Of a stretch of 64,000 nt of DNA, positions 10,368 through 59,810 are shown piece after piece. The stretch's first letter is position 1. The number at the start of each line of letters is the position of its first letter. The DNA is from a virus. Made by a program: the position numbers and the translations under genes. The stretch is taken from IMG/VR virus record IMGVR_UViG_3300013101_002049, positions 86,129 to 150,128 of that record, one strand, 5' to 3'. Under the pieces are notes generated by a model, which was not told where the DNA came from, searched no databases, and saw nothing but the letters and a program-made list of their open reading frames with translations.

Positions 10368-10379
10368 GTCATTTTTTGT

Positions 10380-10408
10380 CTAGCAAAATACGAATTTTAT
10401 TCTATAAT
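10380..10408 (+). promoter_or_regulatory. phage promoter, CTAGCA-17-TATAAT family
   Basis: CTAGCA at 10380-10385, 17-nt spacer ending ATTC, TATAAT at 10403-10408; the predicted start near 10415 gives a leader of about 30 nt with an AGGAG site before the thymidylate synthase gene at 10445. The same arrangement occurs at 37311, 47545, 54844, 55483 and 62691. It probably starts the 10.4 kb replication and nucleotide operon. Confidence 0.85.
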
Positions 10409-10444
10409 ATAGTTGAATCTCAATGATACAGGAGATAAAACTAT

Positions 10445-23682: not shown

Positions 23683-23692
23683 GAGATTAGAA

Positions 23693-29241: not shown

Positions 29242-29258
29242 AGAGGTAGGATTTAAAG

Positions 29259-29990: not shown

Positions 29991-30463
29991 ATATAATTGG
30001 TAATAAATTTGAACATGGAGAAGAATTTGAAATAGGTTATTTTAATGTAATTGGTAATAATGTTAAAGTGGGTAGTTATGTAAAGATTGGCCATCATTGT
30101 ATAATTGAGGATAATGTAGAAATTGCGGATAACGTTATACTTCAAGGAAATATTAAAATAGCTGAAGGAGCAGTTATTGGTAATAATTGCGTATTAAAGC
30201 ACGGTACTATTTTAACAAATAAAACAACCCTTAAAGATGACGTTTTTATGGGGCCTAATACGATTACACTTGGAGGCACACATGAAAGAAAAACTGAGCA
30301 TGGTACTATCATAGGAAATAGATGTTATATTGGTGGAGGTACTCAAATAGCCGCAAATAAAAAATTATGTGATGATGTAACGGTCGGAGCCCTTTCATTT
30401 GTTAATAGAAATATAGTTAAACCTGGACTATATGTTGGTATTCCTGTAAGGAGTCTTCGATGA
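29987..30463 (+). CDS. hexapeptide-repeat acetyltransferase
   Basis: 158 residues, almost all left-handed beta-helix repeats: VKVGSYVKIGHHCIIEDNVE, IAEGAVIGNNCVLKHGTIL, DDVFMGPNTITLGGTHERKT, NRCYIGGGTQIA, and the closing PGLYVGIPVRSLR. Similar in plan to WlbB-type sugar acetyltransferases. Starts with an ATGA overlap, so it is coupled to the preceding acyltransferase. Confidence 0.72.
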   Translation: MNIIGNKFEHGEEFEIGYFNVIGNNVKVGSYVKIGHHCIIEDNVEIADNVILQGNIKIAEGAVIGNNCVLKHGTILTNKTTLKDDVFMGPNTITLGGTHERKTEHGTIIGNRCYIGGGTQIAANKKLCDDVTVGALSFVNRNIVKPGLYVGIPVRSLR

Positions 30464-31389: not shown

Positions 31390-31953
31390 AAAAAATAAAT
31401 TTAGGCACCTCTGTTAAATGGCAAGCTGTTGATAAAAGAGACGTATTGGATGTTCGTGAAAAAAGTTTTGAATGATATGCCATTTCCTAAAGGGTTAATA
31501 TTAGAAATAGGCTGTGCATCAGGTAATTTTTTTAATATATTACGCAATAAGAATTTTAAAAATAATCGTTATATTGGAATAGATTTAGATTCACGGCAAA
31601 TAGAAAAAGCTAGAAGTAATTTTCCTAAAGAAGATTTTATTTGTGGTAATGTATTAGATGATAAATTTAATAAGCTTATAAAATCGGCTAATATTATAGT
31701 ATCTTTTGAAGTATTAGAGCATATAGATTTGGATAAAAAATTGTTTAATAAAATTAAAAGTAATACTCCTATTATATTCTCAGTTCCAAATTTTAAATAC
31801 AGAAGTACATTTCCTGATGGTCATAAAAGATGGTTTGATTTGGATGGGTGGATAGATAGATATAAAGACATTATAGATATTAGTGAAGTATGGTCTATTA
31901 AACATTATAAAAAAGATCGAAAAATATTTGTTTTTCAATCTACTAGGAGATAG
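31386..31953 (+). pseudogene. SAM-dependent methyltransferase with an apparent +1 frameshift
   Basis: The expected start is the ATG at 31386, in an ATGA overlap with the previous stop like its neighbours. That frame reads MKKINLGTSVKWQAVDK and then hits a stop. Shifting by one base at the A-run 31434-31437 continues as ETYWMFVKKVLNDM into a normal methyltransferase: LILEIGCASGNFFNIL (motif I), YIGIDLDSRQIEKA (motif II), IIVSFEVLEHID, ending at 31953. Either a real frameshift, a programmed slip or a sequencing error. Without repair, translation would have to start at the TTG at 31429 (174 residues). Confidence 0.7.
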
Positions 31954-31955
31954 TA

Positions 31956-33017
31956 ATGAAAATATTTTTAGTAGGTGGAGCTAGACCAAATTTTATAAAA
32001 ATAGCCCCAATCACCAGAGCTTGTATTAAATTTGATATGGAATACAAACTTATTCATACCGGGCAGCATTATGATTTTAATATGTCGGAATTATTTTTTG
32101 AGCAATTAAAAATAAAAAGTCCAGACTATAATTTGAATGTAGCCTCATCCACTCATGCTGATCAGACTGCTAAAATTATGCAAAGATTCGAAAAAATATG
32201 TTTAATGGATACGCCTAATGTGGTGATTGTTGTAGGAGATGTTAACTCCACTTTGGCCTGTTCGATTGTAGTTTCAAAGATAGAAAATATTAAATTAGCT
32301 CATGTTGAAGCGGGATTACGTTGTTTTGATAGACGTAAGCCAGAAGAAATAAATCGGGTAGTGACCGATGTGTTATCAGATTATTTATTTGTTACTAATG
32401 ATGGTGCTGTAAAAAATCTTACAAAAGAAGGTATAGAAAGAGAAAAAATATTTCTGGTTGGTGATACTGTTATTGACAGCTTAATTCATAGCTTACCTAA
32501 GATAAAGACTTCTGTTGGAGATGATTATGTTTTAGTAACTATACACAGACCGTTAAGTACAGATAAAAAAGATCGTTTAGAAACTATTTTGAAAGCTTTA
32601 GTAAAAATATCTAAAGATATAAATATAGTTTTTCCTATACACCCTAGAACTCTAAATAAAATAGAGCAATTTAATCTTCAAAGCTATATCAAAAAGTTAA
32701 ATATAATAGAACCTGTAGGTTATTTAGATTTTTTGTCGTTATTGGTGAATTCTAAAGCAGTTGTCTCCGATTCTGGAGGATTACAGATTGAAACGTCTTT
32801 TTTAGGAATCCCATGTATTTCTATAATGAATAGTACAGCTAATTTATATACGTTGAATCAAGGCACCAATGTATTAGTGAGTTATGATGTGGAAGATATA
32901 TACACACAATTAATGAGGGTGATAGGAACAAATTGTGTGCTTTATAGAGATAAACTTACTGATGGAAAGTCAGCAGAGCGAATATTAAAAATACTTATGG
33001 AGAAAGAATATGTTTAA
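31956..33017 (+). CDS. UDP-HexNAc 2-epimerase (WecB/WbpI-like)
   Basis: 353 residues, full family length. Signatures: GGARPNFIKIAPITRA, LIHTGQHYDFNMSELFFEQL, VVGDVNSTLACSIV, HVEAGLRCFDRRKPEEINR, VTIHRPLSTDKK, FPIHPRT and SDSGGLQIETSFLGIPC. It interconverts UDP-GlcNAc-type and UDP-ManNAc-type sugars. Given WbpB- and WbpD-like neighbours it could be the WbpI-type epimerase acting on a diacetamido-uronic acid; sequence alone cannot separate the two. Confidence 0.85.
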   Translation: MKIFLVGGARPNFIKIAPITRACIKFDMEYKLIHTGQHYDFNMSELFFEQLKIKSPDYNLNVASSTHADQTAKIMQRFEKICLMDTPNVVIVVGDVNSTLACSIVVSKIENIKLAHVEAGLRCFDRRKPEEINRVVTDVLSDYLFVTNDGAVKNLTKEGIEREKIFLVGDTVIDSLIHSLPKIKTSVGDDYVLVTIHRPLSTDKKDRLETILKALVKISKDINIVFPIHPRTLNKIEQFNLQSYIKKLNIIEPVGYLDFLSLLVNSKAVVSDSGGLQIETSFLGIPCISIMNSTANLYTLNQGTNVLVSYDVEDIYTQLMRVIGTNCVLYRDKLTDGKSAERILKILMEKEYV

Positions 33018-33642
33018 TCGCATACTTTGTTTAGGAGCGCATACAGATGATGGAGAGTTTGGATGTGGTGGAACATTAGCTAAATTTATTGGTGAAAATA
33101 AAGAAGTATATTATGCTACATTTTCATTTGCTGAAAAATCTTTAATTAAAGGATTTACTAATGATTCAACACATAAAGAGATTTTAGAAGCAACTTCGAT
33201 TTTAGGATTGAATAAAGATAATCTCATTACTTTTAATTATGAAGTTCGAAAATTTGATAGTTATCGCCAAGATATATTGGAAGATATGGTTAAATTAAAT
33301 AGTCGATTAAAACCAGATTTAGTGCTCACGCATAATACCCAGGATACACATCAGGATCATGAAGTTATTTGTAAGGAAAGTTTTAGAGCTTTTAAACAAA
33401 CTTCATCTATTTTTGGATATGAATCATTTAAAAATAATCGGAGATTTAATTCAGATATCTATATCGAGTTATTAGATAAGTATATAGATATAAAATTAAA
33501 AGCCATTCAATGTTATAAATCACAGATAGTTAAGAAAGAAAGTAATACTTTTATAATTAAGCAAGCAGCGATGGTTAGAGGTGCAAATATTGGATGTAAA
33601 TATGCAGAATGTTTTGAAAATATTAAATTTATAATGAGGTAA
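33010..33642 (+). CDS. PIG-L/LmbE-family deacetylase
   Basis: 210 residues. The zinc motif AHTDDGEFGCGGTLAKF (AHxDD) is at the N-terminus, HNTQDTHQDHEVICKES provides the second HxxH-type ligand set, and YESFKNNRRF follows. The family removes N-acetyl groups from GlcNAc-containing substrates. It overlaps the epimerase by 8 bp, so a deacetylation step on the same sugar is likely. Confidence 0.8.
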   Translation: MFNRILCLGAHTDDGEFGCGGTLAKFIGENKEVYYATFSFAEKSLIKGFTNDSTHKEILEATSILGLNKDNLITFNYEVRKFDSYRQDILEDMVKLNSRLKPDLVLTHNTQDTHQDHEVICKESFRAFKQTSSIFGYESFKNNRRFNSDIYIELLDKYIDIKLKAIQCYKSQIVKKESNTFIIKQAAMVRGANIGCKYAECFENIKFIMR

Positions 33643-33649
33643 TAATAAA

Positions 33650-34528
33650 ATGAAATTTGCTCTAATAGGGGCTGCTGGATATGTAGCTCCAAGACATATG
33701 CAAGCTATTTATGAAACTGGAAATGATTTAGTAGCAGCATTAGACCCCCATGATTCTGTTGGTATATTGGATCGTTATTTTTTTAATTGTGAGTTTTTTA
33801 CTGAAACTGAAAGGTTTGATAGGCATTTGGAAAAATTGCGTAGAGAAGGTGAGAGGGTGCATTATATTAGTATCTGTTCGCCAAATTATTTACATGATGC
33901 TCATTGTAGATTAGCTCTTAGAGTTGGATCGAACGCTATTTGTGAAAAGCCTTTAGTATTAAATCCTAGAAATATAGATCAGTTGGTAGAATTAGAGAAA
34001 GAATATAATAAAAAAGTTTATGTAGTTTTGCAATTAAGATTGCAGAAAGAACTATTGAAACTTAAATCAGAGTTAGATAACACATATCGAGTGGTGGATA
34101 TAAAATATATTACCCCCAGAGGTCAGTGGTATTTTAGATCTTGGAAAGGTGATGAAAATAAATCTGGTGGATTAGCTTCTAATATAGGAGTGCATTTATT
34201 TGATATGGTTATTTGGTTGTTTGGAAAAGTAGAGGATTTTGTGATAAGTAAAAAAATAAACAATAAGGTAGTGGGTACATTACTATTAGAAAGAGCCAAG
34301 GTAAAATTTATGTTATCTACTGATAATCAAGATTTGCCGGATGGTTATGAATTTTATAGATCTATAACTATTGATGGTAATCCTATTAAGTTTGATAAAA
34401 ATTTTACTCATTTACATACAGATATCTACAAAAATATATTGAATGGAGATGGTTTTGGCTTAGAAGATGCTAGACCTTCAATAGATTTGGTTTACAAAAT
34501 AAGGAAGTTGAATAATGTGGTGTCATAA
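33650..34528 (+). CDS. Gfo/Idh/MocA dehydrogenase, WlbA/WbpB-like
   Basis: 292 residues. N-terminal NAD site [55 protein letters not shown], and the family's [10 protein letters not shown] (EKP catalytic Lys). [22 protein letters not shown] is the usual C-domain motif. It matches WlbA/WbpB, which oxidises C3 of UDP-GlcNAc uronic acid. It directly precedes a WbpD-like acetyltransferase. Confidence 0.82.
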
Positions 34529-35000
34529 ATCTTCATATATAGATGACTGTGTAATTGGCGAAGGTACTAAAATATGGCATTTTTGTCATATTTATAACTC
34601 AATTATAGGTAAGAATTGTGTTATAGGTCAAAACGTGATGATAGGCCCAGATGTAAAGGTTGGTAATGGCTGTAAAATACAAAATAATGTATCATTGTAT
34701 AAGGGCATTGTATTAGATGACGATGTATTCATAGGGCCGTCAGCTGTTTTTACTAATGTAATTAATCCACGGTCTTTTATAAATAGAAAAGCTGAATTTT
34801 TAAATACATTTATTCATAAGGGCGCTACTATTGGAGCTAATGCTACCGTATTATGTGGCGTCACTATTGGAGAATATTCTTGTGTAGCAGCTGGGGCTGT
34901 GGTAACTAAAAATGTTGATCCTTATACATTAGTTGTTGGTAATCCTGCTAAATATACAAAAATGATTGGCTGCGATTTTAATTTGAATGGGGTAATATAA
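34515..35000 (+). CDS. WlbB/WbpD-like N-acetyltransferase
   Basis: 161 residues. Strong match to the WbpD pattern: [95 protein letters not shown]. This family adds the 3-N-acetyl group to UDP-2-acetamido-3-amino-glucuronate. Overlaps the dehydrogenase by 14 bp. The aminotransferase (WbpE) and the WbpA oxidase needed in between are not in this window. Confidence 0.85.
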
Positions 35001-35001
35001 T

Positions 35002-35934
35002 TTGAAAGATTTTAAAAAAGGCTTAGGAAAAATATTAGTTATCGGTGATTTAATGCTAGATAATTATATATTGGGAACTGTTGATAGGGTTTCTCCAGAG
35101 GCACCAGTACCGGTAGTTCGTGTAGATAAAGAAACATTAACACTCGGGGGATCAGCGAACGTTGTAAACAATTTCTGTGGGTTAGGAGTAAAACCCTTAA
35201 TTTGTGGTGTAGTTGGTTCTGATATTAACGCAGGGCATATATTATCTATGTTAAGTGAAAAAGATTTATTTATAGATGGTATTATAATTGATGGTGATAG
35301 ACCTACAACGATTAAGACTAGGGTGGTTGGAAACGATCAACAAGTAGTGCGTATTGATTACGAGAAAATATCCACAGTAAATAATCGTATTACTAAAGAG
35401 ATGTTAAATTTTGTACAGACAAACAAAAGAAGTATTGATATGATAATCATTTCTGATTATGGTAAAGGTGTTGTTTCACGTCAGCTTATTGTTGAATTGA
35501 CAGCTATAAGTGGATCTATACCAATTTTAGTTGATCCACATGTTACCAATTTCAAACATTATGTTGGGATTACAGGTTTAACACCTAATCATCATGAGGC
35601 TGGTGATTTTTGCGGTTTTAAATTGACTAATGATGAACGAGTAATTAAAGCAGGCGATTATATTTTAGATAAGTTAAAATGTGAATATGTATTGATTACT
35701 AGAGGTTCTGAAGGCATGACATTATGTACAAAGTCTGATGTGTTTCATATATCTACAGTTGCTCAAGAGGTATATGATGTTTCTGGCGCCGGGGATACGG
35801 TTATTAGTGTATTTGCTTATGGATTAGTACAAGGTATGTCATTATTTGAATCAGCTAAACTATCTAATAAAGCTGCTGGAATTGTGGTTGGTGAACGAGG
35901 GACCTCAGTTATTACGAAGGAGAAATTATTATAG
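35002..35934 (+). CDS. PfkB-type sugar kinase, HldE kinase-domain-like
   Basis: 310 residues from a TTG start, chosen because it follows GGGG by 9 nt; no in-frame ATG fits better. VIGDLMLDNYILGTVDRVSP and EAPVPVV are diagnostic for the D-glycero-D-manno-heptose-7-phosphate kinase domain of HldE; LGGSANVVNN, GLTPNHHEAG and the ATP/anion site DVSGAGDTVISVFAYGL follow. Only the kinase half is here; a nucleotidyltransferase follows as a separate gene. Confidence 0.82.
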   Translation: MKDFKKGLGKILVIGDLMLDNYILGTVDRVSPEAPVPVVRVDKETLTLGGSANVVNNFCGLGVKPLICGVVGSDINAGHILSMLSEKDLFIDGIIIDGDRPTTIKTRVVGNDQQVVRIDYEKISTVNNRITKEMLNFVQTNKRSIDMIIISDYGKGVVSRQLIVELTAISGSIPILVDPHVTNFKHYVGITGLTPNHHEAGDFCGFKLTNDERVIKAGDYILDKLKCEYVLITRGSEGMTLCTKSDVFHISTVAQEVYDVSGAGDTVISVFAYGLVQGMSLFESAKLSNKAAGIVVGERGTSVITKEKLL

Positions 35935-35948
35935 TTGGAGGTGTATAA

Positions 35949-36725
35949 ATGGATTTTGTAATTATCAGTGGTTATTTTAATCCAATTCATAAAGGACATA
36001 TAGATTATATCAAGGCAGCAAAAGATCTTGGTGATTCGTTGATCGTTATTGTAAATAATGATGTACAGCAAGAAATTAAGAAAGGTAAAATAATTTTACC
36101 TGAAACAGATAGAATGGAGATTGTTAAATCTTTGAAGTATGTGGACGAATGTGTTCTAGCTATTGATCAGGATAATACAGTGATTAAAACATTAGAAATG
36201 TTGGCAGACAGAATAAAATCTGAAGGTGACTATTGTATTAGGTTTGCAAACGGTGGTGATAGACATTCAGAGGGGGTAGTTCCTGAATCAGTTTTATCCG
36301 AGAAATACAATATTGAATTTGTTTATGGGGTAGGTGGAACAACTAAAAGGGATTCAAGTACTCGTATCAACTCTTTAATGAAAGAATCTTTTACTATAAC
36401 TCATCCTGAATATCATAATAAGGTTTGGGGGTCAGAAGAATGGATAGTGAATAGTCAGTTATATTGTGGAAAGATATTAAATGTTAATAAAGGGCATAAT
36501 TGTAGCTATCATTTTCATAAAATAAAAGATGAAACGTTTTATATTTTATCTGGTACTGTAGCAATGACGATTGAAGGGGAAACACGTATCATGGGTATAG
36601 GAGATGTTGTTCATTTAGCTCCATATACTAAACACACATTCAAAGCTTTAGAAAACACTCAGATATTAGAGATTTCAACACAACATTTTGAGGAGGATAG
36701 TCATCGATTGACTAAAAGTATATAA
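35949..36725 (+). CDS. cytidylyltransferase-like nucleotidyltransferase fused to cupin
   Basis: 258 residues. Residues 1-145: SGYFNPIHKGHIDYIKAAKD (HxGH motif), LIVIVNNDVQQ, RFANGGDRH and GGTTKRDSSTRI, like the HldE C-terminal half or other cytidylyltransferase-like enzymes. Residues 150-258: cupin with KVWGSEEWIVN, YHFHKIKDETFYILSG, GDVVHLAPYTKHTF, EISTQHFEEDSHRL. The fusion suggests nucleotide transfer coupled to isomerisation of a sugar. Preceded by GGAGG; follows the kinase. Confidence 0.78.
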   Translation: MDFVIISGYFNPIHKGHIDYIKAAKDLGDSLIVIVNNDVQQEIKKGKIILPETDRMEIVKSLKYVDECVLAIDQDNTVIKTLEMLADRIKSEGDYCIRFANGGDRHSEGVVPESVLSEKYNIEFVYGVGGTTKRDSSTRINSLMKESFTITHPEYHNKVWGSEEWIVNSQLYCGKILNVNKGHNCSYHFHKIKDETFYILSGTVAMTIEGETRIMGIGDVVHLAPYTKHTFKALENTQILEISTQHFEEDSHRLTKSI

Positions 36726-36727
36726 AA

Positions 36728-37231
36728 ATGGAAATGATTTTTGAAAGACCGATAAAATTAATTGTCTCCGAAATAGATGGAGTTCTTACAAATGGCACAT
36801 ACGCAGAGGATGAATTAGGTAATACCTTATATAAAGTTTTTAATCAAAAAGATTTTTTTGTGATTAATGAATTAAAGAAGTATTATAAGGTAGTTTTTCT
36901 TTGTGATGATAATAAGATTAATTATAATATGTGCCAGCGTAAAAGTTTGCCATTTTATTGGGGTAAAGGAAGTAAAGGTAAGTATGAAATTATACCTAAT
37001 ATATTAAGGCGTTATGATGCTACCCCTGATAGTACTATTTACATAGGTTCGAAACTATCAGATAAGAAATGTATGCAATTGATACCTTATTCTATGTGCC
37101 CGGATGATGTTGGTGATTATTTAAGAAGCATTGCTTGGGCTCCATTTATTGCAAAAGGTGGTGAAGGTATTTTTATTGAGTTGCTCGACCTTTTACAAGA
37201 GAATATAAGAAAATATATAAATTTAATATAA
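36728..37231 (+). CDS. KdsC-like HAD protein with altered catalytic motif
   Basis: 167 residues, KdsC/C0-type HAD without cap (LIVSEIDGVLTNGTYAEDEL, FNQKDFFVINEL, IYIGSKLSDKKCMQLI). The nucleophile motif, usually DxDGVxTDG, reads EIDGVLTNG, so the first Asp is Glu, and motif IV reads GSKLSD rather than GDDxxD. Phosphatase activity is doubtful; a regulatory or binding role is possible. Last gene of the glycan island. Confidence 0.7.
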   Translation: MEMIFERPIKLIVSEIDGVLTNGTYAEDELGNTLYKVFNQKDFFVINELKKYYKVVFLCDDNKINYNMCQRKSLPFYWGKGSKGKYEIIPNILRRYDATPDSTIYIGSKLSDKKCMQLIPYSMCPDDVGDYLRSIAWAPFIAKGGEGIFIELLDLLQENIRKYINLI

Positions 37232-37254
37232 AAATGATAAAAAATGATAGATAA

Positions 37255-37288
37255 TTATATATTTTTATATAAATTCTTCGTTTTTTTT
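37255..37288 (+). terminator. weak terminator-like hairpin after the glycan island
   Basis: TTATATA at 37255-37261 pairs with TATATAA at 37266-37272 around a TTTT loop; eight T residues follow at 37281-37288. The stem is A/T only and the T-run is 8 nt away, so termination would be inefficient. It lies between the island and the next promoter. Confidence 0.35.
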
Positions 37289-37310
37289 CTGAAAAAAATG
37301 ATAAATTAAC

Positions 37311-37339
37311 CTAGCAATATTGAAATAATATTCTATAAT
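37311..37339 (+). promoter_or_regulatory. phage promoter, CTAGCA-17-TATAAT family
   Basis: CTAGCA 37311-37316 and TATAAT 37334-37339 with a 17-nt spacer ending ATTC. Lies 30 bp before the dnaX ATG (37369), which has GGAGAAGG as ribosome site. It should start the second replication operon independently of the glycan island. Confidence 0.85.
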
Positions 37340-37368
37340 ATAAGTGTAGTTTATAACGGAGAAGGGCT

Positions 37369-39354
37369 ATGATAAAGAAGAGAAGGAAAGGTGATTTAAA
37401 TGTTGCATATCGACCTTACCGCATTGATGAGGTATTTGGTCATGATCGTATAAAAAATATGATCTCGGGATATTTAGAAAATGCTACATTACCACATGCC
37501 TCATTGTTTACTGGACCAGCAGGTTGTGTGGATTGCGATACTGAATTTTTTACTGGTTATGGTTGGAAAAAGATTTCCGAATACACTGATGGTGATTTAG
37601 TAATGCAGTATGATACTGCTACTAAGATAGCATCGTTAGTTAAACCGTTTAGGTATATAAAGAAGCCAGTAGATAAATTATTTCATTTTAAAACTAAATA
37701 TGGATTGGATCAGTGTTTAAGTAAAGATCATAGGGTATTATATTCATTACGAAAAAGTGGTTTACATACTGATAGTTTTGAGTCAATAATAAACACACAC
37801 AATACTAATAAGTATGGTTTTAATGGTAAATTTTTAACATCGTTTAATTTAGATGCATCTGCTGGTATTGATATGTGTTCCGCGGATTTACGTGTAATGG
37901 TTATGATAATTGCTGATGCAACTATTGACCCTAATAGAACAAAGTGTTGTCTTAATTTAAAAAAGAAAAGAAAAATAGAACGTGCTCATAAATTATTAAA
38001 CGAGGCAGGTATTGAATATTCTACATTAACCCAGGGTGATTATACACGATTTTATTTTATACCTCCAATTAGAACTAAGGAATTTGATAGTTACTTTTAT
38101 GGTTGTAATGCCAATCAATTAGAGACTATATCATCTGAGGTGGTTTTGTGGGATGGTGATCAAAATAATATTTTCTTTACAACATCTAAACAAAGTGCAG
38201 ATTTTATACAATATGCATTTACTGCTTCTGGTTATAGAGCTTCGATAAATATTGATGATAGGCGAATAAATAATAGGTCTATTACTTACAGGGTTATCAG
38301 ATCTACTAGTACTGTTTGCGGATTTAGTACTGTGGCCGATAGAAAGACTGTTATTTCTGAATATACACCAATAGATGGTTATCAATATTGTTTTACAGTT
38401 CCATCATCTTATTTAGTACTTAGAAGAAATAATTGCATATTTATAACTGGTAATTGTGGTAAAACGACTTTTGCTAGGATAGTTGCTTTAGGTTTGAATT
38501 GTGAAACAGGTGTTACATCTAATCCATGTTGTGAATGTTCTACATGTAAAAGTATTATAGCATTGAATAGTCTTTCAGTATTAGAGTTAGATGGTGCAAG
38601 AACAGGAAATGTTGATACTGTCAAACGTGTATTAAATGATTTACCCGCGGCTCCCTTTGGTAATGATAGAGTGCGGGTATTAATTCTTGATGAGGCGCAT
38701 AAACTTAGTGACGCCGCAGAGGATTCCCTCCTAAAGTTTTTAGAAGACACACCTGCTCATGTGTATATTATATTATGTACCAATGAGCCTCAAAAACTTA
38801 AAGAAGCCATTCGACAGCGTTGTAAAATGATTCAATTTAGTAGATTGGAGCGCAAACCTATATATGAGTTATTAGAACAAGTTGCGCAGTTTGAAGGTAT
38901 GAATTATAACTCAAAAATTCTTAATAAAATTACTGAGGAATGCGAAGGGACACCGCGTATAGCGTTGTCTTTTTTACAGCAGATTAATGCTGAAGGTAGT
39001 TGGACGAATGAAGCGGTTGGTTTTATTTTAAGTGCTGGCCTCGAAGCAGATCAACAAGAAGTTATAGATATGTGTAGATTGTTAGTTAAGAATCATGGCC
39101 AATGGCAACCAGTTCAAAATATTTTTTTGAAGTTGGTTAAAAAAATTCCAGTAGAAACTATGCGTATAGCGGCTACTGGATTTTTATCTGGATGTTTTAA
39201 GAGATCGACTTCCATTGAAGATGCAACTCGTTACGCTAAATGTGTAGAGTTAGTTGGGCAGTTATATTATGGACCTAAGCCCGAGCATATGTTATTGATG
39301 AAATTGTTTCGGAGTTATAATATTATACATTCGGGGAAGGATATATGGACATAA
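37369..39354 (+). CDS. dnaX: clamp loader ATPase, DnaX-like, interrupted by an intein
   Basis: 661-residue precursor, about 351 residues once spliced. YRPYRIDEVFGHDRIKNMI opens the AAA+ module; Walker A is split, GPAG^CGKTTFAR; after the intein come the zinc-binding CCECSTCKS, Walker B VLILDEAHKLSDAAEDSLLK and sensor 1 IILCTNEPQKL, PRIALSFLQ. It loads the phage's DnaN clamp. Only one loader subunit is visible, so it may form a homo-oligomer or use host subunits. The end overlaps the polymerase gene by 10 bp. Confidence 0.88.
   Translation: MIKKRRKGDLNVAYRPYRIDEVFGHDRIKNMISGYLENATLPHASLFTGPAGCVDCDTEFFTGYGWKKISEYTDGDLVMQYDTATKIASLVKPFRYIKKPVDKLFHFKTKYGLDQCLSKDHRVLYSLRKSGLHTDSFESIINTHNTNKYGFNGKFLTSFNLDASAGIDMCSADLRVMVMIIADATIDPNRTKCCLNLKKKRKIERAHKLLNEAGIEYSTLTQGDYTRFYFIPPIRTKEFDSYFYGCNANQLETISSEVVLWDGDQNNIFFTTSKQSADFIQYAFTASGYRASINIDDRRINNRSITYRVIRSTSTVCGFSTVADRKTVISEYTPIDGYQYCFTVPSSYLVLRRNNCIFITGNCGKTTFARIVALGLNCETGVTSNPCCECSTCKSIIALNSLSVLELDGARTGNVDTVKRVLNDLPAAPFGNDRVRVLILDEAHKLSDAAEDSLLKFLEDTPAHVYIILCTNEPQKLKEAIRQRCKMIQFSRLERKPIYELLEQVAQFEGMNYNSKILNKITEECEGTPRIALSFLQQINAEGSWTNEAVGFILSAGLEADQQEVIDMCRLLVKNHGQWQPVQNIFLKLVKKIPVETMRIAATGFLSGCFKRSTSIEDATRYAKCVELVGQLYYGPKPEHMLLMKLFRSYNIIHSGKDIWT
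37525..38454 (+). other. intein in DnaX Walker A
   Basis: 310 residues (53-362). Starts CVDCDTEFFTGYGWKKISEY; block B is LSKDHRVLYSL; ends YQYCFTVPSSYLVLRRNNCI then FITGN, followed by Cys. The penultimate residue is Gly instead of His, as known for a group of inteins ending TGN. A diverged LAGLIDADG-type segment is at VMVMIIADATIDP, where the acidic residue remains; endonuclease activity is uncertain. Confidence 0.88.
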
Positions 39355-41177: not shown

Positions 41178-41606
41178 ATGGAAATTAAAATTCACAGGTT
41201 AGATGATAATGCAATTGTGCCTACATATGGTTCTGATGGTGCAGCATGTTTAGATCTTTATTCAGTAGATGTAGTTATTATAAGACCAGGTGATGTTCGT
41301 TATATACGAAGCGGATGGTCGTTTAGTATACCTGAAGGATATGAAGTTCAGATTTATCCTCGGAGTGGTATAGCTTGTAAAAAGCAGTTGATTGTTTTAA
41401 ATTCTCCTTGTATTATTGATAGTGATTATCGTGGAGAAGTTTATACATATATGAAAAATATCAGTAATGAATCTTTTATGTTTCGTCAGGGAGATAGATA
41501 CGCCCAAATGGCTATTAAACGAAGCATTCCCGTAGAGTTTGATGTTGTTGATGAATTAGATGAAACAGAACGCGGTGAAGGCGGATTCGGATCGACTGGT
41601 ACTTAA
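41178..41606 (+). CDS. dut: dUTPase
   Basis: 142 residues, usual trimeric dUTPase length. The five motifs are readable: GSDGAACLDLYS (1), PRSGIA (2), NSPCIIDSDYRGEVY (3), RQGDRYAQMAI (4), ERGEGGFGSTGT (5). It hydrolyses dUTP to dUMP, feeding the thymidylate synthase at 10445 and keeping uracil out of DNA. Four bases after polA. Confidence 0.92.
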   Translation: MEIKIHRLDDNAIVPTYGSDGAACLDLYSVDVVIIRPGDVRYIRSGWSFSIPEGYEVQIYPRSGIACKKQLIVLNSPCIIDSDYRGEVYTYMKNISNESFMFRQGDRYAQMAIKRSIPVEFDVVDELDETERGEGGFGSTGT

Positions 41607-41619
41607 TAGGGGGAAAGAT

Positions 41620-44600
41620 ATGGGTAAGTTATCTGAAAACGGAAAAAAAGTGGCAGAAGATAGATATTTTATGGATGATGAAGATTGGGATGGTTGTGCT
41701 AGTCGTGTTGGTACAGTTGTAGCTGGCGCCGAAAATTCTAATTCATTGAAATATTCTGACAAATTTAGTGAAATGATTTATAATATGGATTTTTTACCCG
41801 GTGGAAGAATATTACGTAATGCTGGTCGTCCGAGGGGATCTATGTTTAATTGTTATCACTTACCGATAGGAGATTCACGTGAAGAAATTGGCCAGTTTTA
41901 CAAGGATTCATTAATTTTATGGGGTGAAGGTGGTGGGATAGGTGTTAATGCGTCTTCTTTACGCCCTAAAGGAGCGGATATCAAAGGTGTTGGCGGTAAA
42001 TCATCGGGGCCTGTTAGTTTTTTAAGAGCGTCAGATTCTATTGCGGAAACTGTTGAAAGTGGAGGTTCTCGTAGAGCTGCTGCTCTAGCATTGATGCATG
42101 TTGCTCATCCTGATATTATGCGGTTTATTGATGCTAAGTTAAAACATGGAGAATTATCACATTACAATATTTCTGTAGCTGTTTCAGAGGATTTTTTAGC
42201 AGCCGTTGAAGCAGATATAGATTGGGAATTCAAATTTTATCAAAAAGCATACGGAAAAATAAGAGCTAGATATATATGGGATAAAATAATAGAAAATATG
42301 ATTAAATGCGCAGAGCCTGGTTTATTAAATTGGGATAATTTAACTAAAAATAATTCGTATTATTACGATCCGGTTATGGGCTGTAACCCCTGTCTTACTG
42401 GTAGTACTAAAATATATGTCGCTGATGGGCGTAGGTATGTATCAATAAAAGAATTGGCTGATGAAGGTAAAGATGTGCCTGTTTTTTGCTATAATAAAAA
42501 AACGCAGAAACCGGAAGTTAAAATGATGCGTAGACCACGTATAACTGGTTATAATAAGAAAATTTTGAAAGTAACTTTAGATGATGGTTCATCTATACGT
42601 TGTACAGAAAATCATGAATTTTATATGAAGGATGGTAGTATTAAACGGGCTGATGAATTGAAGTCAGGAGATAGATTGCATCATTTAGTTTCGTATAATG
42701 CGTCATTAGAAGAGATTTTTAAAGGTTCTAATTCTAGGTCTTCTGATTATGTTTGGTTAAATACAGGTTTTGCCAATACATTAAGTGAGCATAGGTTAGT
42801 TGCTGAATTTAAATTAGGCAGAAAATTAAGAGTTGGTGAGGTAGTTCATCATAAAGATAGAAATAGTTTAAATAATTGTTGTACCAATTTAATGGTGATG
42901 ACTAAGAAGGAGCATGATAAATTACATACTGCTGATATGATGGGTGAAAAAAATCCTATGAATAGATTTCCTGAGAAGAACTGGTTGATAAAACAAGATC
43001 ACTCTGGTAGTAATAATGGTAGGTTCAAAGGATATACTCCTGATCAAGTGTTTGATTTGGCAGTAGAATATTCTCTTAAGTTAGGTAGGCGTATTACTCA
43101 GAAAGAATGGTTTAAATATTGTAGAAAAAACGATATTTCAAATAGTCGTTATTCATTAGGTAAATACACATCACCTAGTAAGTTATTGAAAGCTGCAGCA
43201 GAGAAAGCTGACGTAGTAGTTTATAATTATTCAGCTAATATTAGATCATATAGACGTTACCTTAAATTGTTAAAAGAAACTGATTTAAATATATTTTTTG
43301 AAAATGGTCGTATTTATGTAAATAAAAAATGTGAATGGTGTGGTAAATCATTTATAGTAAATTGGGATAATAGGGAGCGAGCTTTTTGTTCTAGAAAATG
43401 TTCTAGTGATTATGGTTGGAATAATGAAGTAAGTAGATCTAAATTTTATTCTCATTATGAAAATAAACAACAGGAAACAAGAAATGCTCAAATCAATATT
43501 TATAATGAATTAAAGAAAACATTTGGAAGAGATCCGTTGAAAAAAGAATGGATGAGTGCTTGTAAGAAAAACAATGTACCTTCTAGGATACGAAGTGCTA
43601 ATGAGTCTGGATTTAATGAGTATTGTTTTACATCATATAAGGAATTAAAAGAAGCGGCTGAATTAAATTTTGTAGTAGTTTCTGTTGAAGAAGATGGGTA
43701 TGAAAATGTGTATAATGGTACAGTAGATGAGCATCATAATTTTTATATTATGGTAAGTGAAGCCGAAACTAAATCCAAAAAACCTAAATATAACAATGTG
43801 TTATGCGCCCAGTGTGGCGAGGCAATTTTAGCACCTTACGATGTTTGTGATTTAGGTTCATTAGTGCTTCCAAATTTTATTACTGGTACAATTAACACTA
43901 ATTGGAAGAAACTAGAAGAAGTGATTAAACTATCGGTTAGATTTTTGGATGACGTAATAGATGTAAATAAATATGTATTAAAAGAAATTGATATTAAAGC
44001 GCATAATTCTCGTCGTATTGGATTAGGAGTTATGGGATTAGCTGAATATCTTTTCGCTAAGAAATTAATATACGGTTCTACCAAAGCGGTTGTTGAGATA
44101 GAACGACTTATGAGGTTTATTCGAGATGTAGTTTATGAAACTTTAATTGAATTGTCTGATGAAAAAGGTGCTTTTCCTAAATTTGAACCAGTTGCTTATG
44201 GTAAATCATCTTTTATACGTAAATTACCTGCGTCATTGCGTATGAAAGTTAAAGAGCATGGTGTTCGTTGTGTTACTGGATTAGCTATTGCACCTACAGG
44301 AACTATTAGTTTGTTAGCTGATGTTACATCTGGGGTAGAACCGCTATTTAGAAAGGCATATATGAGGCACGACCGCGTAGGTGATCGGATGTATATTCAT
44401 CCAATTTATAAACAGTTTCTTGAAGATAAAAATAAAATTGAAAGTTGGTATGTTGATACAGATGATTTGAAACCCGAAGACCATTTTGAAATTCAATCAG
44501 TGGTGCAACGATATGTTGATGGTGCAGTTTCAAAAACTATTAATATGCCTGCTGGAACTACTTCGGAAGAATTGAGTAAATTGTCATTAGAATATGTAAG

Positions 44601-44763
44601 AGATTTAAAAGGTGTGACAGTTTATGTTGATGGTAGTAGAGAAGGTCAGATTTTAAACAAGGTAACTGAAAAAGAAGTTAAAAGTTATTTAAAAGGAAAT
44701 AAAGAAATTACTTCAGCAGGAGAAGAATCAGTGATGTGCGCGTCTGGTTCCTGTGAGATTTAG
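41620..44763 (+). CDS. nrdJ: class II (B12-dependent) ribonucleotide reductase interrupted by an intein
   Basis: 1047-residue precursor, about 573 once spliced. The start at 41620 follows AGGGGGAAAG; an ATG at 41560 lies inside dut. FLPGGRILRNAG, MFNCYHLPIG, WGEGGGIGVNASSLRPKG, GKSSGPVSFLRASDSI, GGSRRAAALAL, then GCNP^CGEAILAPYDVCDLGS after intein removal, and SVMCASGSCEI as the redox tail. The Cys of CGE is the thiyl-radical site in the family. No NrdB or NrdD/G partner is seen, consistent with class II. Confidence 0.88.
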   Translation: MGKLSENGKKVAEDRYFMDDEDWDGCASRVGTVVAGAENSNSLKYSDKFSEMIYNMDFLPGGRILRNAGRPRGSMFNCYHLPIGDSREEIGQFYKDSLILWGEGGGIGVNASSLRPKGADIKGVGGKSSGPVSFLRASDSIAETVESGGSRRAAALALMHVAHPDIMRFIDAKLKHGELSHYNISVAVSEDFLAAVEADIDWEFKFYQKAYGKIRARYIWDKIIENMIKCAEPGLLNWDNLTKNNSYYYDPVMGCNPCLTGSTKIYVADGRRYVSIKELADEGKDVPVFCYNKKTQKPEVKMMRRPRITGYNKKILKVTLDDGSSIRCTENHEFYMKDGSIKRADELKSGDRLHHLVSYNASLEEIFKGSNSRSSDYVWLNTGFANTLSEHRLVAEFKLGRKLRVGEVVHHKDRNSLNNCCTNLMVMTKKEHDKLHTADMMGEKNPMNRFPEKNWLIKQDHSGSNNGRFKGYTPDQVFDLAVEYSLKLGRRITQKEWFKYCRKNDISNSRYSLGKYTSPSKLLKAAAEKADVVVYNYSANIRSYRRYLKLLKETDLNIFFENGRIYVNKKCEWCGKSFIVNWDNRERAFCSRKCSSDYGWNNEVSRSKFYSHYENKQQETRNAQINIYNELKKTFGRDPLKKEWMSACKKNNVPSRIRSANESGFNEYCFTSYKELKEAAELNFVVVSVEEDGYENVYNGTVDEHHNFYIMVSEAETKSKKPKYNNVLCAQCGEAILAPYDVCDLGSLVLPNFITGTINTNWKKLEEVIKLSVRFLDDVIDVNKYVLKEIDIKAHNSRRIGLGVMGLAEYLFAKKLIYGSTKAVVEIERLMRFIRDVVYETLIELSDEKGAFPKFEPVAYGKSSFIRKLPASLRMKVKEHGVRCVTGLAIAPTGTISLLADVTSGVEPLFRKAYMRHDRVGDRMYIHPIYKQFLEDKNKIESWYVDTDDLKPEDHFEIQSVVQRYVDGAVSKTINMPAGTTSEELSKLSLEYVRDLKGVTVYVDGSREGQILNKVTEKEVKSYLKGNKEITSAGEESVMCASGSCEI
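42391..43812 (+). other. intein with HNH endonuclease and C-terminal Gln, in NrdJ
   Basis: 474 residues (258-731). Starts CLTGSTKIYVADGRRYVSIK; block B SIRCTENHEFYMKDG; ends HHNFYIMVSE then an insertion, NNVLCAQ, followed by Cys of CGE. The final residue is therefore Gln, not Asn. The centre has EHRLVAEFKLGRKLRVGEVV, HHKDRNSLNNCCTNL and KKEHDKLH (HNH), then a zinc-like CEWCGKSF ... CSRKCSS. Gln-ending inteins are known in RNR genes of some viruses. Confidence 0.82.
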
Positions 44764-46274: not shown

Positions 46275-47981
46275 ATGAAATCTAAACCAACATATGAATT
46301 AGAATTATCTTTGAAAAATCAAGGGTATAGTTATATTATAGGAATTGATGAGGCTGGTCGTGGTTGTGAGAAACCAGACGCTGAAGTTCTTACTAATAAT
46401 GGGTGGAAATATTACACAGAGATAGATGTAGATAGTGATAGTATTTTATCTTATACTGTAGATGGAAATATTGAGTGGCAAAATATAGCTGGAGTGGTAG
46501 AAAAGAATTTTGATGGTAATTTAATAGAGTTGAAAAATAGAAGCGTTCATATGTTAGTAACACCAGATCATTGTTTTGATGTGTTGAAAAGAACTTTTAA
46601 AAGAGATAAATCCAATAATAATAAATTGAAAATGATTGGTTATAAATTTAGAGGTAGAAAATCAGTAAGAAATATTTCAAATAATGATTTTATACCTCGT
46701 GGTGGTAATTGGTGTGGTAATAACATGGATCGTTTTATATTACCATCAGTTGATAAACATATTTATAATAGTACTGAAAGGGATTATAAAGAAAAGAAAA
46801 TTTCTATGAATGTGTGGTCTGCATTTATGGGTATATATTTATCTGAAGGTAGTTGTAGATTCGATGAAGATACATATAATTATAATGTTATTATATCTCA
46901 ATCTAAAACATCCGTACATTATAAAGATATTTATACTTTATTAAATAAATTACCTTTTGACGTTAAAGAATGTGGGGTAGGATTTGTAATTTATGATAAA
47001 CAACTTGCTAGTTATATGCATCAATTTGGTGATGTATATATTAAATATATTCCTAATTATATTAAAGAATTAAATTCTGATTTATTGAATATATTTATAC
47101 AATGGGCTATTAAAGGAGATGGTTCTTGCTATATTGGTAAAAATAGACAGGAAGTTTGCACATATTATACTGTGTCTGAAAGATTACGTGATGATTTTGA
47201 AGAAATTTTACTAAAAGCTGGTTGGACATATAAAACTTCAATACGAGAACCTAAAAATAGGATCATTAAAAATAGATTAATTTCTAAAGAAAATCAAAAA
47301 GATTGTTTTGAAATTAGATTACGTAGAAATAATAAAATATCTTGTAAATATTTACATAAAAAGTTAATACCATACAAAGGTAAAGTGTTTTGTTTATCGT
47401 TACCAAACTACCATAATTTTTATGTACGAAGATCTGGATCAGGTTATTTTACTGGTAATAGTTTAGCTGGCCCTGTAGTTGCAGCATCAGTAATGATTCC
47501 AGATGGTTTTGATACATCTGGTATAAATGATTCTAAAAAATTATCTAGCAAAAAGCGAGAATTATTCTATAATAGAATTATAACAGAGTGTCCGTATTAC
47601 GTAAGCGCTGTGGATGAAAATATGATAGATGCTATAAATATAAGAGAAGCCACAAAATTAGCAATGAGGAATGTAATTAGAGGAATGAATAAATCAGATT
47701 TCGCTTTAGTAGATGGGAATTTTATTCCAGATTTAATCCAAATCCCCGCACGAGCCGTCGTGAATGGGGATTCTTTGTCTGTATCTATTGCAGCAGCCTC
47801 TATTATTGCAAAAGTTCAAAGAGATGCACATATGGAAGCCATGCATCAAATATACCCTATTTATGGATTTAATAGACACAAAGGTTATGGTACTAAATAC
47901 CATAGAGAATCTATAAAAATTTACGGACCGTGTTCTATTCATAGGAAAACCTTTGGAGGTGTTAAAGAATATGTTAGATAA
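46275..47981 (+). CDS. rnhB: RNase HII interrupted by an intein
   Basis: 568-residue precursor, about 203 once spliced, the usual RNase HII size. IIGIDEAGRG^SLAGPVVAAS (catalytic D-E and GRG motif, split by the intein), INDSKKLSSKKRELF, FALVDGN, SIIAKVQRDAHM, and GYGTKYHRESI with FGG at the end. It removes RNA from RNA-DNA hybrids, for example primers. A promoter of the phage family lies within its 3' coding part (47545). Confidence 0.88.
   Translation: MKSKPTYELELSLKNQGYSYIIGIDEAGRGCEKPDAEVLTNNGWKYYTEIDVDSDSILSYTVDGNIEWQNIAGVVEKNFDGNLIELKNRSVHMLVTPDHCFDVLKRTFKRDKSNNNKLKMIGYKFRGRKSVRNISNNDFIPRGGNWCGNNMDRFILPSVDKHIYNSTERDYKEKKISMNVWSAFMGIYLSEGSCRFDEDTYNYNVIISQSKTSVHYKDIYTLLNKLPFDVKECGVGFVIYDKQLASYMHQFGDVYIKYIPNYIKELNSDLLNIFIQWAIKGDGSCYIGKNRQEVCTYYTVSERLRDDFEEILLKAGWTYKTSIREPKNRIIKNRLISKENQKDCFEIRLRRNNKISCKYLHKKLIPYKGKVFCLSLPNYHNFYVRRSGSGYFTGNSLAGPVVAASVMIPDGFDTSGINDSKKLSSKKRELFYNRIITECPYYVSAVDENMIDAINIREATKLAMRNVIRGMNKSDFALVDGNFIPDLIQIPARAVVNGDSLSVSIAAASIIAKVQRDAHMEAMHQIYPIYGFNRHKGYGTKYHRESIKIYGPCSIHRKTFGGVKEYVR
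46365..47459 (+). other. intein with LAGLIDADG endonuclease, in RNase HII
   Basis: 365 residues (31-395). Starts CEKPDAEVLTNNGWKYYTEI; block B is MLVTPDHCFDVL; ends VFCLSLPNYHNFYVRRSGSG then YFTGN, followed by Ser. The penultimate residue is Gly. Two endonuclease motifs are present, FMGIYLSEGS and FIQWAIKGDGS, so a homing nuclease is likely active. Confidence 0.9.
47545..47573 (+). promoter_or_regulatory. phage promoter inside the rnhB coding sequence
   Basis: CTAGCA 47545-47550, 17-nt spacer ending ATTC, TATAAT 47568-47573: all positions conserved in the other five copies are kept, although this stretch codes for LSSKKRELFYNR. Transcription would start near 47580 and serve the gene at 47971 and those after it. 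Confidence 0.75.
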
Positions 47982-54824: not shown

Positions 54825-54843
54825 TAAAAAATGAATTTTTTAT

Positions 54844-54872
54844 CTAGCAAAATTGAAAAAATATTCTATAAT
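54844..54872 (+). promoter_or_regulatory. phage promoter, CTAGCA-17-TATAAT family
   Basis: CTAGCA 54844-54849 and TATAAT 54867-54872, 17-nt spacer ending ATTC. The start would be at about 54879, immediately before the hairpin at 54881, and the gene at 54944 follows. Confidence 0.85.
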
Positions 54873-54880
54873 AGATATAG

Positions 54881-54915
54881 AGGTCAGTGGAGTTTATCTT
54901 CGCTGACCTTTTTTA
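54881..54915 (+). terminator. hairpin with T-run at the very 5' end of the transcript
   Basis: AGGTCAGTG (54881-54889) pairs with CGCTGACCT (54901-54909) giving 9 bp with one G-U, an 11-nt loop, and six T from 54909 to 54914. It has terminator form but starts at about +2 of the promoter just upstream, so it could be an attenuator, a short RNA, or a 5' stabilising hairpin. Confidence 0.7.
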
Positions 54916-54943
54916 TTATACAACATTATAGGAGGAAGTAATC

Positions 54944-55456: not shown

Positions 55457-55482
55457 TTATAGTAAAAATTAGTATTATTTAT

Positions 55483-55511
55483 CTAGCAAAATGAGCATTT
55501 TATTCTATAAT
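55483..55511 (+). promoter_or_regulatory. phage promoter, CTAGCA-17-TATAAT family
   Basis: CTAGCA 55483-55488, TATAAT 55506-55511, 17-nt spacer ending ATTC. The predicted start near 55518 leaves a 14-26 nt leader before the gene at 55532/55544. Confidence 0.85.
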
Positions 55512-55531
55512 ATATGTGAGGGCAGATACCG

Positions 55532-55759
55532 GTGGAATATAAGATGCATTGTATTTTATGCGGTTGTAAATGGGGTACAGGAGAAGATATTGGAAGTTCT
55601 GGAATTTGTCCCCAATGTTTTAAAAAATGGATTAATGCTCGTAAAAAGGTAAATAATTTAAGAGAATGTTATGGAGAGTATGGACAGCACGATGATGTGG
55701 ATTGTGTGAATTGCTCCGTGATGAATTTATGTTTTAAGGATACTTATGGAAATAAATAG
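55532..55759 (+). CDS. zinc-ribbon small protein
   Basis: 75 residues from the GTG at 55532 (GAGGG 9 nt upstream), or 71 from the ATG at 55544 with GGTGG as site. CILCGCKWGTGEDIG ... ICPQCFKKW forms a zinc ribbon; DCVNCSVMNLCF adds more Cys. Overlaps the methyltransferase by 14 bp. Confidence 0.55.
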   Translation: MEYKMHCILCGCKWGTGEDIGSSGICPQCFKKWINARKKVNNLRECYGEYGQHDDVDCVNCSVMNLCFKDTYGNK

Positions 55760-56985: not shown

Positions 56986-57441
56986 ATGAGTAAAACAATG
57001 AATAAATTTAATCGAGGTTTGAATTATTTGTCACGAGGTCAATTTAAGGCTGCTATTAAGAATTTTGAAGCTGCTGTTCGTAGTGGTGATGGAACAAATT
57101 TACAACGAGATGTAGCGGCATTTTACATGGTCAATACTGCGAAATATCGCAGGGAATGGAAGAAAAGACGGTATGGTAATGCTAATCTTTTCTGGTATGA
57201 TCCAGAGGATAATAGTGGAAGAGCTTGGTCAGACGTGGATATTGCCGCTGTCTTGCTTACACCTAATACTAAAAAGATGAACGATTATCTTAGCAAGTTT
57301 CTCGGCAGAAACTTGAATGCTATTAGTTTTCAAAGACGTTACGCTTATGGACGGCCACTTGCATCTTGGCGAAATGAAAGTGGAAAGCGTTATACTCGCT
57401 ACACTCAGACTAAGAACGTGTATCGTAGACTTGGTGCTTAA
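56986..57441 (+). CDS. hypothetical protein, N-terminal TPR-like
   Basis: 151 residues. RGLNYLSRGQFKAAIKNFEA resembles one tetratricopeptide unit. The remainder is basic and aromatic (YRREWKKRRYGNANLFWYD, SFQRRYAYGRPLAS). TTGGAGG is its ribosome site. Immediately downstream lies a structured 57.44-57.61 kb RNA region, which would be its 3' untranslated region. Not recognised. Confidence 0.55.
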   Translation: MSKTMNKFNRGLNYLSRGQFKAAIKNFEAAVRSGDGTNLQRDVAAFYMVNTAKYRREWKKRRYGNANLFWYDPEDNSGRAWSDVDIAAVLLTPNTKKMNDYLSKFLGRNLNAISFQRRYAYGRPLASWRNESGKRYTRYTQTKNVYRRLGA

Positions 57442-57442
57442 T

Positions 57443-57608
57443 AGTACCAGCACTCTGTAGCGGCTGGTTATGCGTAAAGGTTTTTTGGTACTTCCTTGCG
57501 TCCTAAAATTTTAAGTTATTTGAAAAGCTGCTCGAATAACTTTACCTTAAACATAACCTCAGAGTGTTGTCTATATATAAGGTGGGTGCTCTTCGTTGAG
57601 CACCCGCC
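57443..57608 (+). ncRNA. candidate structured RNA element with possible pseudoknot
   Basis: Helices read by eye: 57448-57457 with 57560-57569 (10 bp, one G-U); 57466-57472 with 57552-57558 (GGTTATG/CATAACC); 57477-57481 with 57544-57548 (AAGGT/ACCTT); 57513-57523 with 57532-57542 (11 bp, one G-U); 57582-57591 region GGTGGGTGCTC with GAGCACCCGCC ending 57608 (11 bp, TTCGTT loop). AGTACC (57443-57448) can pair with GGTACT (57487-57492), crossing the outer helix. No ORF. Class unknown. Confidence 0.6.
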
Positions 57609-57630
57609 TAAACATATCCGAGGATGAAAA

Positions 57631-57984
57631 ATGGAACTACAAGATATATTAGTAGTAGAATATTTAACTCAGCGGGTAATATTTTTTATTGAGAGGTTTG
57701 GTTATCATAATTTAGATATAATAGAAACCTCAAAAGGTGGTATTTCGTATCTTAAAGATAATTTGTATGATTATATATTTTTAGGTGGTGAGTTAGGAAA
57801 AGAAGGTGGTAGTGGTTGTGAAGTAGCTTATTTTTTAAATGATGAGCAAGGTAATCCTAATGTAATGGCGAATATAATTATACATAGTTGGAATTTAATG
57901 GAAGTTGATAAAATGATACAGTTATTACCACAAGCGAAATATTTACCATTTAATGAAAAACAATTGAGCACATTATCTATTTAG
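57631..57984 (+). CDS. receiver-like protein (cyclic-phosphate-processing type), degenerate
   Basis: 117 residues. YDYIFLGGELG ... GSGCEVAYFL and NIIIHSWNLMEVDKMIQLLP resemble the phage-associated cyclic-phosphate processing receiver family, where LDHDLG and HSWNP are typical. The acidic pair is replaced by GGE, so it may have lost phospho-acceptor function. GAGGA lies 6 nt before the ATG. Moderate confidence in the family call. Confidence 0.55.
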   Translation: MELQDILVVEYLTQRVIFFIERFGYHNLDIIETSKGGISYLKDNLYDYIFLGGELGKEGGSGCEVAYFLNDEQGNPNVMANIIIHSWNLMEVDKMIQLLPQAKYLPFNEKQLSTLSI

Positions 57985-57994
57985 TGCGGGGGCC
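57985..57994. repeat. left arm of 10-bp GC-rich inverted repeat flanking hsp20
   Basis: TGCGGGGGCC starts right after the stop codon of the previous gene; the reverse complement GGCCCCCGCA lies at 58520-58529, just after the hsp20 stop. A run of this G+C content is rare in this genome. Confidence 0.8.
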
Positions 57995-58519: not shown

Positions 58520-58529
58520 GGCCCCCGCA
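58520..58529. repeat. right arm of the inverted repeat flanking hsp20
   Basis: GGCCCCCGCA, exact reverse complement of 57985-57994. It lies 10 bp after the hsp20 stop and 25 bp before the next start. Confidence 0.8.
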
Positions 58530-58554
58530 TTAAAAATTTATGGAGGTGATTGTT

Positions 58555-59733: not shown

Positions 59734-59810
59734 GCCGCTATAGCTCAGGAGGTTAGAGCGTATCCTTGGTAAGGATAAGGCCATCGGTTCAACTCCGATT
59801 AGCGGCTCCA
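59734..59810 (+). tRNA. tRNA-Thr (anticodon GGT)
   Basis: Acceptor GCCGCTA/TAGCGGC, D stem GCTC/GAGC, anticodon stem TATCC/GGATA with loop TTGGTAA (GGT), T stem ATCGG/CCGAT with loop TTCAACT, discriminator T and encoded CCA. G1-C72 and C2-G71 agree with known Thr identity. All stems are complete. The gene abuts the preceding stop codon. Confidence 0.93.

What the first reader, a model, noticed from the sequence alone, without database searches (positions are those of the whole stretch)
57443..57608. Structured intergenic RNA with long nested helices and a possible pseudoknot
Between two small genes, about 165 nt form a 10-bp closing helix, two internal helices and an 11-bp terminal hairpin, followed by another 11-bp hairpin with a TTCGTT loop. 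AGTACC/GGTACT can pair across the closing helix. G+C is locally high. I do not recognise a known RNA class (no tmRNA, RNase P, hammerhead or known riboswitch motifs seen).
Basis: seen in the sequence. Interest (0 to 1): 0.72.

Follow-up and report, generated by a model that had tools for sequence, protein, structure and literature searches.

The report
Structured gap in a phage operon
A phage operon has a strongly folded non-coding stretch between two genes: its last hairpin is an ordinary, position-conserved intergenic hairpin, while the larger fold in front of it is an orphan with no detectable relatives, so a new RNA class is possible but not shown.

Summary
It is best read as two things. 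(1) The 3' hairpin (57580-57609, 12 bp, no U-run, 10 nt before the Shine-Dalgarno) carries most of the folding signal (z -4.9). It recurs at the same place, with unrelated sequence, in the only relative that shares both flanking genes (L190). Such hairpins are enriched in this phage family. (2) The 122-nt core (57448-57569; z -3, top 1-2% of windows) is an orphan. It is missing from L190's gap and matches nothing in Rfam, phages, plasmids or the related virus records searched. The core shows two possible pseudoknots, one (GCGGCU/AGCUGC) geometrically plausible. I commit to an intercistronic mRNA structure that segments or stabilises the p151 / cREC-HSP20 transcript (0.45). The clearest RNA evidence lies 400 nt downstream: in nine of nine loci the HSP20 gene is bracketed by a 13-22 bp helix whose arms differ in most lineages yet always pair; these genes take the top 11 places among 2,698.

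The parts
56986..57441 (+). p151: upstream orphan gene, weak N-terminal TPR similarity, basic C-terminal half
   Evidence: one homologue found, L190:2436-2900, 61% identity
57448..57457 (+). P1 closing helix, 5' strand CAGCACUCUG (pairs 57560-57569)
57560..57569 (+). P1 closing helix, 3' strand CAGAGUGUUG
57466..57472 (+). P2 5' strand GGUUAUG (pairs 57552-57558 CAUAACC)
57552..57558 (+). P2 3' strand CAUAACC
57477..57481 (+). P3 5' strand AAGGU (pairs 57544-57548 ACCUU)
57544..57548 (+). P3 3' strand ACCUU
57483..57508 (+). weak hairpin A (UUUUGG/CUAAAA plus 2 bp), worth about -4.6 kcal/mol; competes with pseudoknot PK1
57513..57542 (+). P4, 11-bp hairpin AAGUUAUUUGA/UCGAAUAACUU with 8-nt loop AAAGCUGC
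57460..57465 (+). possible PK2, 5' strand GCGGCU (internal loop between P1 and P2) pairing with the P4 loop AGCUGC 57526-57531; 6 bp, -7.8 kcal/mol
   Evidence: both loops unpaired in the ensemble; chance about 0.001-0.005 for one loop pair, before correcting for having looked at several
57526..57531 (+). possible PK2, 3' strand AGCUGC (P4 loop)
   Evidence: chance 0.036 for an exact 6-mer partner
57487..57492 (+). possible PK1, 3' strand GGUACU
57570..57579 (+). TCTATATATA just before the hairpin; L190 has ACATATAT in the same place. Promoter-like at most, unproved
   Evidence: not listed by the consensus promoter scan
57580..57609 (+). 3' hairpin, 12 bp, UUCGUU loop, no U-run; position-conserved intergenic hairpin
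   Evidence: z -4.87; counterpart at L190:2945-2980; enrichment of such hairpins
57620..57623 (+). Shine-Dalgarno GAGG of the cREC gene, outside the hairpin stem
57631..57984 (+). cREC gene (PF20274 cyclic-phosphate processing receiver domain)
   Evidence: syntenic in relatives
57980..57994 (+). 5' arm of the HSP20-bracketing helix, TTTAGTGCGGGGGCC (separate feature, same operon)
58520..58534 (+). 3' arm of the HSP20-bracketing helix, GGCCCCCGCATTAAA (separate feature, same operon)

Best explanation
The stretch is an intercistronic structure of a phage operon mRNA, made of two layers. Its 3' hairpin (57580-57609) is one of the stable, non-terminator hairpins this phage family keeps in gaps between genes, often just upstream of a Shine-Dalgarno sequence. 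The larger fold before it (57448-57569) is a lineage-specific addition at the same gene boundary. Likely mechanism (inferred): the structures block exonucleases and/or direct endonuclease cleavage at the boundary, so that the upstream p151 segment and the downstream cREC-HSP20 segment have separate stabilities and expression levels; the free Shine-Dalgarno means translation of cREC is not shut off. Shown: the fold is unusually stable, it lies between a stop codon and a free Shine-Dalgarno, the hairpin has a counterpart in the one relative with both flanking genes, such hairpins are enriched family-wide, and no U-run follows. Inferred: transcription across the gap, processing or stabilisation, and any role for the core.
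For: Stability. Same hairpin position with unrelated sequence in L190 (the two gaps do not align better than shuffles, P = 0.63). Enrichment of stems of 9 bp or more in intergenic DNA: 5 in G000 against 0-1 in ten shuffles, 27 in relatives against 0-4 in three shuffles, several directly before a Shine-Dalgarno. No T-run follows the hairpin and the terminator scan does not list it. All neighbouring genes lie on the + strand, and P1, hairpin A, P4 and the 3' hairpin each contain a G.U pair valid only on the + strand (for the 3' hairpin). Elsewhere in the same operon, pairing and not sequence is demonstrably conserved (HSP20 helix).
Against: No transcript data. The core is absent from L190 and from every other record searched, so it cannot be essential to the boundary. 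The core's folding is only modestly better than shuffled sequence and nearly as good on the other strand.
Confidence: 0.45

Rival explanations
1. The core 57443-57570 is a discrete non-coding RNA with a compact tertiary fold: P4 folds back at the three-way junction so that its loop (AGCUGC) kisses the P1/P2 internal loop (GCGGCU), with a second pseudoknot AGUACC/GGUACU. It would be cut out of the operon transcript and act in trans.
For: Both PK2 loops are unpaired in the ensemble and complementary over 6 bp. P4 (11 bp) is about as long as P2 plus P3 (12 bp), so fold-back docking is geometrically plausible (lengths; inference). Several long helices in 122 nt.
Against: No homologue, no covariation; pseudoknots found by eye after the fact; no promoter or processing evidence.
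Confidence: 0.22
2. Only the 3' hairpin is functional; the core is a neutral insertion or decaying sequence that happens to fold well.
For: Core missing in L190, which shares both flanking genes; core z about -3, reached by 1-2% of windows of this genome.
Against: Phage genomes are under pressure to lose such DNA (general knowledge); the core has long, mostly uninterrupted helices in an A+T-rich genome.
Confidence: 0.22
3. Cis-regulatory leader (riboswitch- or thermometer-like) for the cREC-HSP20 genes.
For: Lies directly upstream of cREC and, further on, of a small heat-shock protein gene.
Against: The Shine-Dalgarno is free and 10 nt beyond the hairpin; no alternative terminator; no Rfam match; HSP20 has its own leader, and in several relatives its own promoter-like sequence.
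Confidence: 0.08
4. DNA-level element: a miniature transposon-like insert whose terminal inverted repeat is the closing helix.
For: CAGCACTCTG/CAGAGTGTTG brackets a segment absent from L190.
Against: Single copy in its own 150-kb record; no copy in 1.3 Mb of relatives; no target-site duplication seen.
Confidence: 0.03

Closest known systems
Intercistronic stabiliser / processing hairpins of bacterial and phage operon mRNAs
   Same: Stable stem-loop without U-run between a stop codon and the next Shine-Dalgarno; conserved in position, not sequence
   Different: Here a 122-nt multi-helix fold precedes it; processing not shown
GOLLD, ROOL and other ornate RNAs, some found in phages (PMC12286853, PMC2864571)
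   Same: Multi-helix non-coding RNA, some in phage genomes
   Different: Those are several hundred nt, widespread and covariation-supported (own knowledge); this is 122 nt and an orphan, and no Rfam model matches it
Phage T4 stable RNAs of unknown function near its tRNA genes (own knowledge)
   Same: Small phage RNAs about 120-140 nt without known function
   Different: No relation in sequence tested; here no transcript is known

Membership tests
Any Rfam 15 family (riboswitches, ribozymes, tmRNA, RNase P, GOLLD etc.) | Covariance-model match at the curated score | tested here: not met
   only tRNA-Thr 59734-59807; E up to 10, nothing convincing
Intrinsic terminator | G+C-rich stem followed by a U-run | tested here: not met
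   one search lists none here; hairpin is followed by AAACATATCC
Intercistronic non-terminator hairpins of this phage family | Strong stem between stop codon and Shine-Dalgarno, no U-run, recurring at the same boundary in relatives | tested here: met
   (for the 3' hairpin only; one relative with the same boundary)
Intercistronic stabiliser / processing element | Changes mRNA half-life or is a cleavage site | not testable with these tools
   needs RNA-seq and deletion
New structured-RNA class | Several homologues with compensatory base-pair changes | tested here: not met
   no homologue of the core:
HDV-like ribozyme | P3 hairpin between P2 and the 3' strand of P1, nested double pseudoknot | tested here: not met
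   fold shows no hairpin between the P2 strand and GGUACU; no Rfam hit
Miniature transposon | Several copies, target-site duplication | tested here: not met
   single copy

The most novel reading that the evidence does not exclude
The core is the first known member of a compact phage non-coding RNA class, closed by a 10-bp helix and folded back on itself by a kissing interaction between the P4 loop and the P1/P2 internal loop, plus a flanking pseudoknot.
Probability: 0.12. Interest if true: 0.7.

Novelty: new member of a known kind. Interest (0 to 1): 0.38.

Why it matters
For the finding itself: it shows that a striking single-sequence fold can be one ordinary, position-conserved hairpin plus an orphan that comparative data do not yet support. 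If the core proved to be a real RNA it would be a new compact phage RNA. The work on its neighbourhood uncovered a better-supported RNA feature in the same operon: a long-range helix that joins the 5' leader and the 3' flank of the phage HSP20 gene in all nine loci tested, kept by pairing and not by sequence, which makes a specific model (end-to-end closed HSP20 message) testable.

Tried and rejected
DNA similarity to phages and plasmids: nothing. Best DNA hits in 50 related records: L091 lies in what I read as an intein within a terminase gene and L092 in an ORF, so chance. Single-sequence covariance model R1 over 50 records, then 5 more including L190: nothing at a meaningful level. Pattern scans for core motifs in IMG/VR and GTDB genomes: hits not recognised by the model. 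Three single-protein scans of IMG/VR found no relatives; the major head protein, the p170 alignment and the cREC alignment did. AlphaFold model of p151 too poor to use (mean pLDDT 45). Alignment of the two gaps (window, L190): not better than shuffles. HSP20 has no match in the annotated phage collection at E 1e-8. HDV-like, terminator, miniature transposon and Rfam readings rejected as listed.

Full report
Where it is. The window is the last 64 kb of a 150,128-nt IMG/VR virus record. The phage has RecA, a sliding clamp, a DNA polymerase A, several genes with what look like inteins, and a major head protein with at least 186 relatives in IMG/VR, the 80 fetched being 80-98% identical in their best segment. 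Around the finding all genes are on the + strand: p170 (54944), an N6/N4 DNA methylase, two small CxxC proteins, p151 (56986-57441), the gap, cREC (57631, PF20274), HSP20 (58025), two small Gly-rich ORFs, a phage metallopeptidase (58920), then tRNA-Thr.

Is the observation right? Yes for the helices; see the observation check for coordinates. 57430-57650 folds at z -5.1, and the 166-nt window at 57441 is the most stable of 6,384 after correction for G+C. Split in two, the 3' hairpin has z -4.87 and the core z -2.96; about 1-2% of 128-nt windows of this genome are as extreme as the core. The reverse complement of the core also folds (z -2.5), but P1, hairpin A, P4 and the 3' hairpin each contain a G.U pair that would be an A.C mismatch on the other strand, which mildly favours the + strand.

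Homologues. Nothing similar to the core was found in phage or plasmid records, in 50 related virus records by DNA or by a single-sequence covariance model, in pattern scans of IMG/VR and of GTDB genomes, or in 1.3 Mb of relatives read directly. The operon itself is syntenic: p170 - CxxC - (variable) - cREC - HSP20 - small ORF - metallopeptidase, with some genes missing in some lineages, in a dozen relatives. In these p151 and the gap are absent; where cREC is present it follows another gene closely. One record, L190, has p151 (61%), cREC (45%), HSP20 (48%) and the metallopeptidase (60%) in order. Its p151-cREC gap is 100 nt, contains a 14-bp hairpin at 2945-2980 just before the Shine-Dalgarno and preceded by ACATATAT (TCTATATATA in the window), and lacks the core. 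The two gaps do not align better than shuffled sequence. So a hairpin is kept in position while its sequence is replaced, and the core is lineage-specific. One relative cannot tell gain from loss.

What kind of thing is the hairpin? Stems of at least 9 bp with at least 4 G-C pairs in intergenic DNA are far above chance in this phage (5 against 0-1 in ten shuffles) and its relatives (27 against 0-4 in three shuffles), and several sit right before a Shine-Dalgarno. It has no U-run and is not a terminator. This is a familiar kind of intercistronic element.

What could the core be? Two tertiary contacts are possible. GCGGCU (57460-57465) with the P4 loop AGCUGC (57526-57531) is better: -7.8 kcal/mol, both loops open in the ensemble, chance about 0.001-0.005 for that loop pair, and P4 (11 bp) is about as long as P2+P3 (12 bp), so P4 could fold back and dock. 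I found this after seeing the fold, so the probabilities are optimistic. Without homologues it stays a prediction.

Mechanism. I commit to an intercistronic mRNA structure that separates the stability and expression of the p151 segment from the cREC-HSP20 segment (0.45). Shown: position, stability, recurrence of the hairpin, lack of a terminator tail, free Shine-Dalgarno. Inferred: transcription through the gap and effect on decay or processing. Rivals: a discrete ncRNA (0.22), a functional hairpin plus neutral core (0.22), a cis-regulatory leader (0.08), a transposon-like insert (0.03).

Found on the way, and stronger than the finding. In all nine HSP20 loci examined (window, L101, L103-L107, L109, L190) the sequence upstream of the HSP20 start (helix arm beginning 31-81 nt before it) pairs with sequence beginning 7-41 nt after its stop in a 13-22 bp helix, and the arms differ in sequence between most lineages (two close relatives, L101 and L109, share theirs). 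Scored the same way, 2,698 genes of these phages have a 99.5th percentile of 31.8; the HSP20 helices score 30-46.5 and fill ranks 1-11 (some loci are represented twice in that list). Several helices shorten sharply if A.C is allowed instead of G.U (14 to 6, 13 to 6, 15 to 11, 15 to 10 bp), which points to selection on the + strand, as RNA; one (L109) instead lengthens. In L103, L104 and L105 a TTGACA promoter-like sequence ends just before the 5' arm, so the arm would lie at the very 5' end of the message (inference). My literature searches found no report of it, but they were few. E. coli IbpA, a small heat-shock protein, represses its own translation through its 5' UTR (PMC10474464, abstract read); that is a lead, not a test.

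Noticed in passing
window 57980-57994 / 58520-58534; L101, L103-L107, L109, L190: HSP20 gene bracketed by a 13-22 bp long-range helix in nine of nine loci, arms different in most lineages but always pairing, ranks 1-11 of 2,698 genes; G.U usage mostly points to RNA on the + strand.
   Followed up: yes
L161:2488-3243; L104:11935-12279: Two other genes with 14-15 bp bracketing helices.
   Followed up: no
window 10368-10444, 37232-37368, 54825-54943, 55457-55543; L009:9463-9563: Repeated promoter-like pair CTAGCAAAAT (CTAGCAATAT at 37232) ... TTCTATAATA (TCCTATAATA in L009) in five intergenic regions; probably this phage's own promoter type.
   Followed up: no
L006:4767-4831 (after the major head protein gene): 13-bp hairpin preceded by TATAAATATA, like a T4 late promoter box, and a second outer inverted repeat TATCGTAT/ATACGATA.
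   Followed up: no
window 20116-22563, 37369-39354, 41560-44763, 46275-47981: Probable inteins in a glycosyltransferase, a clamp-loader-like ATPase, a ribonucleotide reductase and an RNase HII (read translations, not tested).
   Followed up: no
window 22564-37231: Long run of sugar and glycan genes (glycosyltransferases, acyltransferases, UDP-GlcNAc epimerase-like, HldE-like kinase and nucleotidyltransferase) inside the phage (by eye).
   Followed up: no
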